A DNA stretch of 64,000 bases from positions 2,827,501 through 2,891,500 of the forward strand of contig NZ_CP136594.1 in assembly GCF_032852305.1 (NCBI RefSeq). Direction: 5' to 3'. Position numbers and translations under genes: made by a program. The notes beneath the pieces were generated by a model, which saw only the letters and a list, made by a program, of their open reading frames with translations, had not been told where the DNA came from and searched no databases. Source of the stretch: Parasphingorhabdus sp. SCSIO 66989. Lineage in GTDB: Bacteria; Pseudomonadota; Alphaproteobacteria; Sphingomonadales; Sphingomonadaceae. Positions 9,342 to 13,603 of the stretch are shown piece by piece (position 1 is the stretch's first letter; each line of letters opens with the position of its first letter).

Positions 9342-9887
9342 TCAGGCGTCGTCTGTTTTCTTTGGCGCTGCCTTGGCAGCAGGTTTCTTGGCCGGGGCCT
9401 TTTTGGCTGGAGCCTTTTTAGCAGCAGGCTTCGCAGCAGCTTTAGCGGCTGGCTTCTTGGCAGCGGTGCTGGCTGCAGTCTTGGCCGCTGGCTTCTTGGC
9501 CGGTGCCGCTTTCTTTGCAGGAGCAGCTTTGGTTTCTGCAGGTGCATCAGCCTTTGCCGGAGCGGCTTTCTTCGGTGCAGCCTTCTTGGCAGCACCCACG
9601 CCGGTGATCTTCAGCACCGTCTGATACTGACGATGGCCTTGCTTGCGACGATAGTTGTGGCGACGGCGCTTCTTGAAGACAATAACCTTCTCGCCGCGAT
9701 CCTGCGCGATGATTTCAGCCGATACGGCAACGCCCTTGGCGTCCTTGACGGCACCGCCCTCACCTACCAGCAGAACATCGTCCAGCGTGATGGTGTCACC
9801 GGCTTCACCGGCGAGCTTTTCAACCGCAATTTTGTCTCCGGCTGCAACACGATACTGTTTGCCGCCTGTGCGCACGATAGCGAACAT
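9342..9887 (-). CDS. rplU: 50S ribosomal protein L21 with long Ala/Lys/Pro tail
   Basis: 181 aa, against about 103 for typical L21. Residues 1-98 are a normal L21 ([20 protein letters not shown] ... [20 protein letters not shown]). From about residue 99 an 82-residue low-complexity tail consists of AAPKK/PAKKA-like units, resembling histone H1 or AlgP tails, and ends in KKTDDA. L21 binds 23S rRNA; the basic tail probably extends from the ribosome surface and may contact RNA. Similar tails are known on L21 annotations from sphingomonads. It is the first gene of rplU-rpmA. Confidence 0.96.
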
Positions 9888-10116
9888 GACTTTGTCTCAC
9901 TTCATCAAAACTGTTGGCTCGGCGCGGTTCGTATCCTGAAAGGGACATTTCTGATCTGCGCCGGAAAGCAGTGCCCGATAAGGGAGAATCAGTTAACTGT
10001 CAACCAACAGCAGCGCGAAATATGACTCTTTTTATGCACTTTTCCTGTATCAGCCACCCGGTTCTTGCATGGGAATGGATTGCCGCTGTCTCCATCATAA
10101 TGTAGTGGCCCGAGCC

Positions 10117-10653
10117 ATGACTTGCAATCCGGCTATTTCTCTGCTCCCCATTCTATTGTGCAGCGCGCTAACGCTTAATGGCTGCGCTGCGCCCAATGCC
10201 GATTTTCCTGAGTTGAAACGCCGGGCAATAGAGGACCTTCCAGTGGATGACCAACCGGTCAAACGGGCCAGTGGACTTGCCATCATGGCCATGCCCGATG
10301 ATTTGCGTGAGCAGGTCGCCGCCTTGCTGCTAGAGGCGAAGCAGGCGGACGAGAGCTTCCAGTCCGATCTTGCCAAGACCCGTCGCGCTGTTGGCATCGG
10401 CAGAAGCGCCGGTCGCAATAGTGAAAACTGGTCCGTTGCCCAGACCGAAATCAGCGCCCTTTCACGCTATCACAATCGCAGCATCAACGCTTTAAGCGCG
10501 CTCGATACACTGTCTATGGCCGAGACCGAAAAGCAATATACCCGCGACGCCATCTATGATCTGCGCCCCATTGCCGAAGCACAGGCCGAAATAGAACGGC
10601 TGGTCGCTGCGCAGCGGGGCATTTTGACAGACTTGAGTACACAATTGCGCTGA
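10117..10653 (+). CDS. Putative lipoprotein of unknown function
   Basis: 178 aa. The ATG at 10117 is chosen because it begins a lipoprotein signal peptide (MTCNPAISLLPILLCSALTL) with a lipobox leading to Cys23; the upstream ATG at 10069 would add an unlikely extension. The mature region is helical and charged, with a coiled-coil-like pattern (LREQVAALLLEAKQADESFQ and AEAQAEIERLVAAQRGILTD). No family was recognised. It is monocistronic, just upstream of the mobile-element region. Confidence 0.7.
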   Translation: MTCNPAISLLPILLCSALTLNGCAAPNADFPELKRRAIEDLPVDDQPVKRASGLAIMAMPDDLREQVAALLLEAKQADESFQSDLAKTRRAVGIGRSAGRNSENWSVAQTEISALSRYHNRSINALSALDTLSMAETEKQYTRDAIYDLRPIAEAQAEIERLVAAQRGILTDLSTQLR

Positions 10654-10757
10654 ACACGCAAGCCATTGCCTCAGTCTAAGGGTCGATAGCCGCGCAACTG
10701 TCAAGCCAGCTTGACGAAGGTTACGAAAGTGACGCTCGCGAGAGGCAGAGCAGACGC

Positions 10758-10827
10758 TTATTCGGGGACAGTTTTAGAGAGAACTCTCTCGGTTGAGCGC
10801 TCGGGAACTGAAACTGTCCCCGAATAA
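10758..10827. repeat. REP-like palindromic unit
   Basis: Perfect 17-bp inverted repeat (ttattcggggacagttt at 10758-10774 and its complement at 10811-10827). It encloses two smaller palindromes, gagagaactctctc and gagcgctc. The same core, tcggggacagtttt, recurs as a single copy at 10945-10958. Such sequences commonly accompany REP-associated transposases, and a transposase stub lies at 12333. Confidence 0.72.
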
Positions 10828-10926
10828 TCGCCTACGCGTGATGTTGTAATTCAGTAAATGGGAAAGAGCCGACGCGATCATAACAGCGCATGGAGATGTA
10901 GGACATAGGCCTTTTCAGAGGACAGT

Positions 10927-12319
10927 CGGTCTTTTCTGTCTTTTCGGGGACAGTTTTCACTCCATTGCGTTCAACGGAACCGGAACTCAGGTAAACTGTT
11001 GTCTAATTGATAATATAAATCTGCCTTGTTTGCTTGCCTGCTAGCCGATGGTTGTCTTCGAGATATGCTGCTGGCTTTGGCCATGGGTTTGCAGACATTC
11101 TCATGATCGCGTTCAGGCGTTTAGAGTTGGTGTCTCCATGTCACCGGCGAAGTCATCACATAGTGATGCTTCCACAGTTTTTCCGAGATCACCGGTTTCG
11201 TGGCATATCATATGGTCATAGTGTCATTGCCCGCTGGCCGGATCGGCCCAGCTAAACTGTGTGTCTTTCTGCCACAGCAGATGCAGCAGTATGGCCAGTT
11301 TGCGTGCGAGCGCCACTCTGGCATGTTTCAGGCCCCTGGTCTGGGCCAGGGCTTTGCCCCAGTGCTGCAGGGCGCAGGGGCGCTTCTGAGCATCGGATCA
11401 CCGGCCTTGGAGATACGCCCTTTATGATCGCGCTCGCCCGACTGGCTGCGGCGCGGCACCAGTCCGGCATAAGCGGCCACGCTCGCGCTGCGGGTAAAGC
11501 GCTCAGGGTCTTCTATGCTGGTGATAAAGGTCAACGCCGTTATCGGCCCGACGCCGGGGACACTCATCAGCCGACCCGCCACCGGGTCAGCAGCGGCCCT
11601 GGCATCAAGCAGTCTGGCATTGCGCGATAGCTGCGCCTCAAGCGCTTCGATCATCTCGGCCAGCGGCATAAACACCACACGCAGATCAGGGCGCTGGCCA
11701 AACAGTGTTTGCAACCGTTCGCGCCGCTTGCCCGGGGTTGTCACCCGGCCCAGCCTCAGGCCAAACAGCTTGAGCATCCCGCGCAGTTGGTTGGCAAGAG
11801 CATTGCGGCTGCTCACCAGCTGGCCCCTGATCTTCAGCGCCGCCCGGTCGATATGGCTGCCTTCTTGCTTGATATGCACCTGTTTGAACCATCCGGTGCG
11901 CGCCAGATGCGCCAGCGCTTCAGCATCATGCACATCCGATTTATTGACCCGCGCCGACAACGCTCCCTTGGCATGACGTGCACAGATACACAGCACCGGC
12001 ACATCACGCTCTTTCAGCCCATGATATAAAAACACCGCCAAGGGGCCGGTCTCCAATACCACACGCGCGACACCGCCAGCATGGCGCTCCAGCCACTTGG
12101 CCAGAACATCCGGATCACTCGCCACCACATCACGGCGGACAATCTCGCCATCATCTCGCACCACACAGATATGTGTCGCCTTGTCAGATACGTCCAAACC
12201 TGCATACATCGTCATCGGTCATCCTCCTTGCTTGAAGCATGCAAAATGCATGACTTCGTTCCTACAAGGAGGATGACTACAGCAATTACGCCATGTCACC
12301 GAAAAGACCGAAAAGACCG
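10927..12319. mobile_element. IS110-family element remnant with flanking inverted repeats
   Basis: Contains the broken transposase at 11224-12215. The block is bracketed by cggtcttttctgtcttttcgg (10927-10947) and the inverted copy ccgaaaagaccgaaaagaccg (12299-12319), 20 of 21 positions matching. A perfect 13-bp inverted repeat (12218-12230 and 12265-12277) covers the transposase ribosome site. About 280 bp of noncoding DNA lies 3' of the transposase and only about 80 bp 5' of it. True IS ends are uncertain because IS110 members lack classical terminal repeats. Confidence 0.6.
11224..12215 (-). pseudogene. IS110-family transposase, internally deleted and frameshifted
   Basis: The first ~275 codons read MTMYAGLDVSDKATHICVV and so on. 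They carry the DEDD set (D8, E55, D94, D97) of the RuvC-like domain and the C-terminal Transposase_20 region (LMSVPGVGPITALTFITSIE ... GRISKAGDPML). After GDPMLR the frame goes off into APAPCSTGAKPWPRPGA and stops at 11328. A second frame continues the family C-terminus (CALQHWGKALAQTRGLKHAR then VALARKLAILLHLLWQ) to a stop at 11224. Roughly a dozen expected codons between the two pieces are missing, so this is probably an internal deletion with a frameshift. The enzyme is a bridge-RNA-guided recombinase in intact relatives; this copy should be dead. Confidence 0.85.
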
Positions 12320-12332
12320 AACTAGCCACCCA

Positions 12333-12700
12333 CTAACCCTTAACCTTCGGCCCTCGCTTGCGCGGGCGCAGTCTTTTGCCGGATCGTTCTTCCATCTGCT
12401 CCAGCCAGTCCGCATCACCGACCGGGCGCCCTATGGTTTCCGCACGTTGCAACCGCTGCACCGCTTCCGCGTCCGGCGCTTCGCCCATAAACTCGGCAAA
12501 CCGGCCATAGCGCTGCAATATCGGCGCGACGGTGACCAGCCCGTCATCCTCTTCCGCCAGATGTGCTCTTACACTCGGCCAGGGCCAGTCTTCCGCGCGC
12601 TTGACCATCTTGGCCTTGACCGGATTCAGCGCGACATAGCGCACCGCCGCAGCAAGATGCGCCTCATCCATCGCCACCGATCCATAGCGCCCCTGCCCAC
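12333..12700 (-). pseudogene. REP-associated tyrosine transposase, C-terminal remnant
   Basis: The open part (12333-12677) reads MDEAHLAAAVRYVALNPVKA followed by the W-x-W region (DWPWPSVRAHLAEEDDG), the typical second half of RAYT/TnpA_REP proteins. Upstream codons still read QGRYGSVAMDE, matching the family's GRYGSVAMDE segment, then similarity ends near 12700. The His-x-His (HUH) motif and most of the catalytic domain are therefore absent. It lies on the same side as REP-like palindromes at 10758 and 10945, as expected of a RAYT locus broken up by later events. Confidence 0.8.
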
Positions 12701-12827
12701 CAGTTAAACATGCCAGAGACCGTTCGGACAGGTCTATAGGGAACAGGCTACATCTTTATCGACACTATCTTGAGCTGATGCTAATAATCGCTTCCATTAT
12801 ATGATTCTCAAGAAGAATGAATGAGTT

Positions 12828-13346
12828 GTGTCAGGTTTGCAGGACAAAGAACGCTGGTATGCAGTTCAGGTAAAGTCCCAAAAAGAGAAGTCAGCCCTCA
12901 CAAACCTCGATCGACAAGGTTTCGTAACCTTTTGCCCTTGGCAATTGCGGACGATATCCCAGTCAAGGCCAGTCAAGATCGTCAGGAAACCTTTCTTTTC
13001 CGGTTATCTTTTTGTCAGATTCAACTTGTATCGCGACAACTGGCCAAAAATCAACAATACCTTCGGCGTTCGTAGACTAGTTACAGTTCATGCCGGCCAA
13101 ATGCCTAAACCAATGCCGGACGAAGTCATTGAGAGACTAATTGCGAGCTGTGATGCGGATATGTGCATTCAATCGTTAGGCGATATTGCACTCGGCAGCA
13201 CGATCAGAGTCGTAAACGGTCCATTCAGCGACATGTTAGGTCAATTGCAATCTGTAGACAGCAATGAGCGCTTTACAATTCTGTTAAGCATGATGTCCTC
13301 AGAGCTCAAGGTACGACTTCACAGAAGTGATGTGATAGAGGCTTGA
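12828..13346 (+). CDS. NusG/RfaH-like transcription antiterminator of the polysaccharide locus
   Basis: 172 aa from a GTG start. The N-terminal NGN domain is clear (RWYAVQVKSQKEKSALTNLD; FFSGYLFVRFNLYRDNWPKI; GVRRLVTVHAG), and the C-terminal KOW-like part holds GSTIRVVNGPFSDMLGQLQS. Specialised NusG paralogues (RfaH, UpxY, LoaP) bind paused RNA polymerase and suppress termination in long surface-polysaccharide operons. This one is the first gene of such a locus, upstream of rfbA, and is followed by a leader with an ops-like motif. It is smaller than and distinct from housekeeping NusG, which would be near secE. Confidence 0.87.
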   Translation: MSGLQDKERWYAVQVKSQKEKSALTNLDRQGFVTFCPWQLRTISQSRPVKIVRKPFFSGYLFVRFNLYRDNWPKINNTFGVRRLVTVHAGQMPKPMPDEVIERLIASCDADMCIQSLGDIALGSTIRVVNGPFSDMLGQLQSVDSNERFTILLSMMSSELKVRLHRSDVIEA

Positions 13347-13370
13347 CATGCATCCACGGTACCTTATCTG
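13343..13370 (+). promoter_or_regulatory. Candidate promoter after the antiterminator gene
   Basis: A perfect TTGACA (13343-13348), overlapping the stop codon of the antiterminator gene, is followed after 16 bp by TATCTG, a weak -10 match. If active, it would start a leader of roughly 220 nt before rfbA that carries the ops-like motif. Inference only. Confidence 0.35.
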
Positions 13371-13392
13371 AACGCCACACTGACTGTCATGA

Positions 13393-13422
13393 GGTAGCAA
13401 GATTCTCATGCGGTGCGGTAGC
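13393..13422 (+). promoter_or_regulatory. ops/JUMPstart-like motif in the polysaccharide leader
   Basis: GCGGTAGC at 13415-13422 matches the core of the enterobacterial ops element (GGCGGTAGC-type); a second GGTAGC lies at 13393-13398. In enterobacteria, ops in the non-template strand recruits RfaH. Here the motif lies about 70 bp after an RfaH/NusG-like gene and about 180 bp before rfbA. Short motifs of this length can occur by chance. Confidence 0.45.
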
Positions 13423-13533
13423 TATTCGCGTCAAAATTGACTATTCAGCTATAGATGTGATCGCTGTCCGCTCGTCTGAGGGAATTAAAACATAAACGGC
13501 TTTCCCTTCAACATAGTACCTCATCCTTCTCGC

Positions 13534-13555: not shown

Positions 13556-13603
13556 CCGAATATCGCAGCAGAGCTGGCGTAACATCATTGAGGAGAATTG
13601 AGC

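What the first reader, a model, noticed from the sequence alone, without database searches (positions are those of the whole stretch)
10927..12319. Degraded IS110-family element inside a RAYT/REP locus
The IS110-type transposase has intact DEDD residues but an internal deletion and frameshift near its C-terminus. It sits between a truncated REP-associated transposase (12333-12700) and REP-like palindromes (10758-10827, 10945-10958). Several IS110/IS1111 elements are known to prefer REP sequences as targets, so the nesting may reflect targeting rather than chance.
Basis: partly seen in the sequence, partly recalled or inferred. Interest (0 to 1): 0.5.

Follow-up and report, generated by a model that had tools for sequence, protein, structure and literature searches.

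The report
RNA-guided insertion element in REP palindrome
A small jumping DNA element of the IS110/IS1111 family, with a damaged transposase gene but an intact guide-RNA region, sits at a precise point inside a repeated palindrome beside a transposase relic, and its guide matches that target, so the nesting is targeting and not chance, by a mechanism already known from related elements.

Summary
The element is 1,297 bp (window 10998-12294, minus strand), not 10927-12319. Two more copies lie in this genome. All three sit at one point, CGG[T/C]GAC^AGTTTAC, a dispersed REP-like motif; nine uninterrupted copies of TACGGTGACAGTTTAC exist in the genome. In the window the element splits the arm of a palindrome 38 bp beyond the stop codon of a REP-transposase (RAYT) remnant. 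Five relatives with intact transposase also sit in ATTACGGTGAC-like motifs; 17 others use another site. The likely cause is visible: the 3' noncoding region encodes a conserved stem-loop whose internal loop holds two segments matching the two target halves, in the order published for IS1111 seekRNAs. Guide and flank go together across 23 elements (right half 5.6 of 7 matches against 2.9 for mismatched pairs; 0 of 20,000 permutations). All three local copies share one roughly 43-bp deletion and frameshift removing about 59 C-terminal residues but keeping DEDD and the catalytic serine; no intact copy was found here. Whether the broken form was mobilised in trans, works truncated, or received its deletion by gene conversion is undecided; mosaic differences favour conversion. 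New member of a known kind.

The parts
10998..12294 (-). Whole insertion element, 1,297 bp (boundaries ambiguous by up to 3 bp, shared ACA)
   Evidence: Alignment of three genomic copies and joined flanks
11328..12215 (-). Transposase gene remnant, 295 aa: RuvC-like DEDD domain and truncated Tnp domain; S259 aligns with IS621 S241
11375..11385 (-). Deletion joint (net loss about 43 bp against 338-aa relatives); reading frame lost here, out-of-frame C-terminal remainder continues to about 11224
   Evidence: coordinates and size counted by me from these
11129..11193 (-). Target-binding stem-loop of the presumed seekRNA/bridge RNA in the 3' noncoding region
   Evidence: Consensus fold and pair counts; single-sequence fold -26.6 kcal/mol, z -4.24
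11174..11183 (-). Right-half guide, GAAAAACTGT; its last 7 nt complement target ACAGTTT
11140..11149 (-). Left-half guide, CGCCGGTGAC; its last 7 nt equal target CGGTGAC
12283..12288 (-). Left subterminal inverted repeat core TAATTG
11004..11009 (-). Right subterminal inverted repeat core CAATTA
12294..12320 (.). One arm of the 27-nt inverted repeat (93% complementary) that forms the target palindrome
10926..10952 (.).
12333..12695 (-). Remnant (C-terminal half) of a REP-associated tyrosine transposase; stop codon at 12333-12335, 38 bp from the element
10752..10833 (.). Separate REP-like palindrome (TTCGGGGACAGTTT family)

Best explanation
An IS1111-type element of the IS110 family whose 3' noncoding region gives a short guide RNA. 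One segment of an internal loop pairs with the top strand of the right target half (ACAGTTT), the other with the bottom strand of the left half (CGGTGAC); the transposase-RNA complex joins the circular element to the target at the AC(A) between them. In this genome the guide matches a dispersed REP-like palindrome family, so the element entered the palindrome just downstream of a RAYT gene that is now a remnant. Shown by sequence: ends, target motif, uninterrupted paralogues, guide-target agreement across relatives, conserved RNA stem. Inferred: that the RNA is made and guides insertion (as published for ISEc11, ISPa11 and IS621), and that the truncated transposase is now inactive or needs help in trans.
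For: Three copies, same insertion point. Joined flanks of the copy at 512 kb match an uninterrupted repeat across the joint (C1:485461-485642, E 2.6e-45); those of the copy at 2,966 kb match C1:2950121-2950257, 1980598-1980629, 1621440-1621474 and others across the joint. Nine exact TACGGTGACAGTTTAC copies in the genome. Guide versus own flank in 23 elements: right 5.61 of 7 against 2.88 for other pairs, left 4.09 of 7 against 2.49, each 0 of 20,000 permutations; within the 17 non-REP elements right 0 of 20,000, left 8 of 20,000. Conserved stem: 15 pairs, 96.8% of cells paired, 8 pairs with double changes, 0 of 500 shuffles for four of five measures, slid controls 30-51% paired. Guide order and downstream noncoding region as described for IS1111 (PMC11187229, passages).
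Against: No RNA or transposition data. Within the 6 REP-type elements alone the left guide is uninformative (3,318 of 20,000 permutations as good) because all share CGG[T/C]GAC; the right guide gives 172 of 20,000. Two relatives match their right flank poorly (L013 3 of 8, L021 3 of 8). Of five pair-count measures one is not above shuffles (further pair types, 293 of 500). No orthologous empty site was found in the two other genomes of the genus. Guide columns were noticed by eye before the test.
Confidence: 0.9

Rival explanations
1. Chance nesting: an ordinary low-specificity element landed near REP sequences because they are common in intergenic DNA.
For: In the window alone the REP motif count is not beyond shuffles; the second local copy (L001) has no palindrome immediately beside its right end.
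Against: All 3 copies share the same insertion point to the base; uninterrupted repeats span the joint; guide segments match the target.
Confidence: 0.02
2. Targeting is by transposase recognition of a palindromic or folded DNA structure, not by RNA pairing; guide-like matches are coincidence.
For: REP targets are palindromic here, and protein-based REP recognition has been proposed for other IS families (PMC1525189, passages).
Against: The match follows the primary sequence of each element's own flank, including 17 elements in a different site, and lies in a covarying stem-loop.
Confidence: 0.06
3. For the triple broken copy: the truncated transposase is still active, or was complemented in trans by a lost intact copy, and the broken form itself transposed to new sites after the deletion.
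For: Three sites carry the same deletion; ends, DEDD, the serine and the guide loop are intact; no intact copy in the genome.
Against: Differences are mosaic: the 14 peculiar to L003 all lie in the first 540 of 1,297 bp, the 5 peculiar to L002 all in the last 115, none between. That points to gene conversion among copies, which could have spread the deletion without any transposition of the broken form. The lost part belongs to the Tnp domain.
Confidence: 0.4

Closest known systems
ISPa11 and other IS1111-family elements with seekRNA (Siddiquee et al. 2024, PMC11187229)
   Same: DEDD transposase upstream of a noncoding region; two short target matches, top-strand complement first; ISPa11 targets REP sequences
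   Different: Subterminal repeats here are short (about 10 bp in relatives, 6-bp core in the window copy against 11-13 bp); outer extensions are 5-8 bp left and 4-7 bp right (possible pairs 8/4, 7/5, 6/6, 5/7) and not 7 and 3 (or 6 and 3); transposase truncated
IS621 and bridge RNA (Durrant et al. 2024, PMC11208160; Hiraizumi et al. 2024, PMC11208158)
   Same: IS110 family, REP target, internal-loop guides on both target strands, catalytic serine retained
   Different: IS110-group members such as IS621 carry the RNA in the left end, upstream of the gene; here it is downstream; similarity to IS621 is weak (phmmer E 1.6e-9)
ISPpu9, ISPpu10, ISRm19 and other REP-targeting IS110 elements (Tobes and Pareja 2006, PMC1525189)
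   Same: Every copy of the IS in a genome sits in a REP element
   Different: Different hosts and REP families; the paper's text has no occurrence of Sphingo-, Novosphingobium or Caulobacter

Membership tests
IS110 superfamily (DEDD transposases) | RuvC-like DEDD domain plus Transposase_20 domain with conserved serine | tested here: met
   Pfam hits over cut-off, Transposase_20 only 3-67 of 87; DEDD and serine aligned with IS621
IS1111 group | Longer noncoding region downstream of tnp, bearing target matches | tested here: met
   226 bp downstream of the ancestral stop against about 80 bp upstream of the start
IS1111 group | Top-strand complement precedes bottom-strand match in the RNA | tested here: met
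   Right-half guide precedes left-half guide in all 27 aligned rows; definition from PMC11187229
IS1111 group | Subterminal inverted repeats, usually 11-13 bp (7-17 bp in PMC11208160) | tested here: inconclusive
   TAATTGATTT about 10 bp in several relatives; only the 6-bp core TAATTG in the window copy
IS1111 group | Outer extensions of 7 (or 6) bp left and 3 bp right | tested here: not met
   Joint ambiguity allows 8/4, 7/5, 6/6 or 5/7 only, judged by uninterrupted repeats
IS1111 group | Place in the transposase phylogeny of reference IS1111 elements | not tested
   No ISfinder reference set at hand; hence 'IS1111-type', not a filed member
seekRNA/bridge-RNA guided elements | RNA expressed, bound by transposase, determines target | not testable with these tools
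   Only sequence support: guide-flank agreement and structure
REP/RAYT system (target) | Palindromic dispersed repeats that flank a RAYT gene | tested here: met
   Intact RAYT bracketed by inverted ATTAYGGTGACA copies; 14 ATTACGGYGACA in the genome, reversed control 1; inverted pairs

The most novel reading that the evidence does not exclude
A guide-RNA lineage that follows REP/RAYT repeats: across Sphingomonadales and Caulobacterales the left guide stays fixed on the conserved REP core ATTACGG[T/C]GAC while the right guide is rewritten to match each host's REP variant (AGTTTAC, ACGTGCAA, AGGTGCAA, ACCTTAC), so one parasite's RNA co-diversifies with another parasite's repeats; and in this genome the guide-bearing element spread in a transposase-defective form.
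Probability: 0.3. Interest if true: 0.6.

Novelty: new member of a known kind. Interest (0 to 1): 0.38.

Why it matters
It turns an old correlation (IS110 elements sit in REPs) into a base-level guide-target reading in alphaproteobacteria, and offers a natural series of related elements whose guides differ with their targets. Such series are useful for learning how programmable recombinase guides change, and for testing whether IS guides track the spread of RAYT/REP repeats. The mechanism itself is published.

Tried and rejected
Rfam: no match in 9500-13500 up to E 1, so no curated family names this RNA. First guide extraction by pattern failed for the left guide in all but three rows (L019, L020, L021) and ended in an error; it was replaced by alignment columns. 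Orthologous empty sites in the genus: none for two sites; the window site was not searched this way. Whether the other clade's target is also a dispersed repeat: pattern counts were about the control level except in one genome (G289, 7 against 2), so not supported. A donor-binding loop: the invariant GAAGACAACC of the noncoding region resembles the right end ATTAGACAAC, but no matching guide for the left end was found by eye, so none is claimed. Programmed frameshifting to restore the C-terminus was considered; not tested. Promoters: none by consensus in 10900-12400. The tree label 'other' for L031 was given without knowing its target; without it the 18 non-REP rows, one of which (L011) lacks a known right end, form one clade (100/99). 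Structure prediction was not used.

Full report
What is there. The ORF at 12215-11328 (minus) is an IS110-family transposase: DEDD_Tnp_IS110 and a partial Transposase_20 domain. The same gene occurs three times in this 3.27-Mb genome and no other DEDD_Tnp_IS110 match was found there; a DNA search with window 10994-12302 gives the same three places, no fragments, and none in the two other genomes of the genus. All three are 1,297 bp from ATGGCG to GACAAC; by rounded identity the other two copies are 100% and 98% identical to the window copy.

Broken gene. Relatives at 65-73% identity from sphingomonads and Caulobacteraceae are mostly 338 aa. The three local copies lack a segment after GDPMLRSA and run out of frame to 295 aa; I count a net loss of about 43 bp and of about 59 C-terminal residues. 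DEDD (D8, E55, D94, D97) and S259, which aligns with the IS621 catalytic S241, remain (role of D11, E60, D102, D105 and S241 from passages of PMC11208158). Of 19 positions where the copies differ, 14 are peculiar to L003 and all lie in positions 13-540; 5 are peculiar to L002 and all lie in 1183-1281. This clustering suggests conversion between copies, so the shared deletion does not prove that the broken form transposed.

Ends and target. The window copy lies between CTTTTCGGTGAC and AGTTTACCTGAG (element strand). The three joined flanks read TTCGGTGAC^AGTTTAC, TTCGGTGAC^AGTTTAC and TACGGCGAC^AGTTTAC. The genome holds nine exact TACGGTGACAGTTTAC copies and 54 matches to TTCGGKGACAGTTTNC with up to 2 mismatches against 18 for the reversed pattern. 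The joined flanks of L001 match an uninterrupted repeat over 160 bases across the joint, and those of L003 several. In the window the target was one arm of a 27-nt inverted repeat, 93% complementary, now 1,341 nt apart with the element between, 38 bp from the stop codon of a RAYT remnant. The one intact RAYT found in the genome is bracketed by ATTATGGTGACACTTGCAACAACCCC and its inverted near-copy GGGGTTATTGCAAGTGTCACCGTAATTAC. That variant resembles the targets of relatives L034 (GGTGAC^AGGTGCAATAACCCC) and L017 (GGTGAC^ACGTGCAAAAACC).

Guide RNA. Of 28 loci examined, 27 gave both a left and a right end (L011 had no right end). On aligned noncoding regions, 10 columns give a right-half guide and 10 a left-half guide. 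For the test I dropped L012 (contig end and N), L033 (same flanks as L013), L002 and L003 (so that the own element counts once), leaving 23. Own-pair matches were 5.61 of 7 (right) and 4.09 of 7 (left) against 2.88 and 2.49 for other pairs; 0 of 20,000 permutations reached either. Within the 17 non-REP elements: right 0, left 8 of 20,000. Within the 6 REP-type elements: right 172, left 3,318 of 20,000, the left being nearly constant. Examples: L017 right guide 8 of 8, L020 7 of 7, L034, L007 and L039 7 of 8; poor ones L013 and L021, 3 of 8. The columns were spotted by eye first, but they are the same for own and other pairs.

Structure. The consensus fold of 24 noncoding regions puts both guide segments opposite each other in an internal loop between an 8-pair outer and a 4-pair inner helix. 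Counted with controls: 96.8% of cells paired, 8 of 15 pairs with double changes, covariation score 0.214 against 0.104 in shuffles, 0 of 500 shuffles for four measures, but further pair types not above shuffles (293 of 500); slid versions pair 30-51%. The structure was derived from these sequences, which favours it over the slid versions. The window's 65-nt loop folds at -26.6 kcal/mol, z -4.24.

Relatives. In a tree of 26 transposases the non-REP rows (L031, target unknown, aside) form one well-supported clade (100/99) and the REP-type rows lie outside it. ATTACGGYGACA counts, both strands, in the six hosts of REP-type elements: 14, 3, 3, 9, 2, 3; in eight hosts of the other type: 0, 2, 0, 1, 1, 0, 1, 1; in the two congeners without the element: 1 and 1; reversed control 0-2 throughout. 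The first group includes flanks of the elements themselves, so enrichment is clear only in G000 and G398.

Comparison with the literature. IS1111 elements carry the noncoding region downstream, have subterminal repeats of usually 11-13 bp with 7- and 3-bp (occasionally 6- and 3-bp) extensions, and order the top-strand complement first; ISPa11 targets REP (PMC11187229, passages). IS110 elements inserting into REP, and bridge RNAs in the right end of IS1111, are described in PMC11208160 (passages). Full REP association of ISPa11, ISPpu9, ISPpu10 and ISRm19 is in PMC1525189 (passages). The window element agrees in layout, order and target type, and differs in its shorter repeats and right extension. 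Searches for papers joining IS1111/IS110 with REP and guides, or REP, IS110, Sphingomonas and RAYT, listed no paper that appears to describe this sphingomonad/caulobacter group (listings and abstract starts only).

Verdict. The nesting reflects targeting, most likely RNA-guided. The kind is known; the member is new as far as searched.

Noticed in passing
window 12828-13346 +: A NusG-family protein (Pfam NusG) stands directly before nucleotide-sugar (dTDP-rhamnose type) genes at 13598 onward (gene names by recall from the translations), the layout of an RfaH/UpxY-like antiterminator heading a polysaccharide cluster.
   Followed up: no
L001 (genome C1:511250-515134): The right flank of the second copy encodes what looks by eye like an RHS/YD-repeat stretch; the same REP-plus-flank arrangement recurs without the element at C1:485461-485642.
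   Followed up: partly
genome C1:1107227-1108876 and others (L050-L076): A composite repeat: ATTACGGTGACAGTTTACTAAATCCC a few tens of bp from a roughly 65-bp palindrome TTCGGGGACAGTTT...AAACTGTCCCCGAA, often clustered; only one intact RAYT was found in the genome.
   Followed up: partly
L004-L018, L029, L037, L039, L040, L083, L084 (except L012, L016, L017): A sister clade of the element uses another target (T[TC]GGAC or TGGGAC on the left) with matching guides; what that target is was not resolved.
   Followed up: partly
window 12218-12277 -: A 13-nt perfect inverted repeat (GTCATCCTCCTTG / CAAGGAGGATGAC, 34 nt apart) just upstream of the transposase start, overlapping the likely ribosome-binding site and roughly conserved in relatives; possibly translational control.
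   Followed up: no
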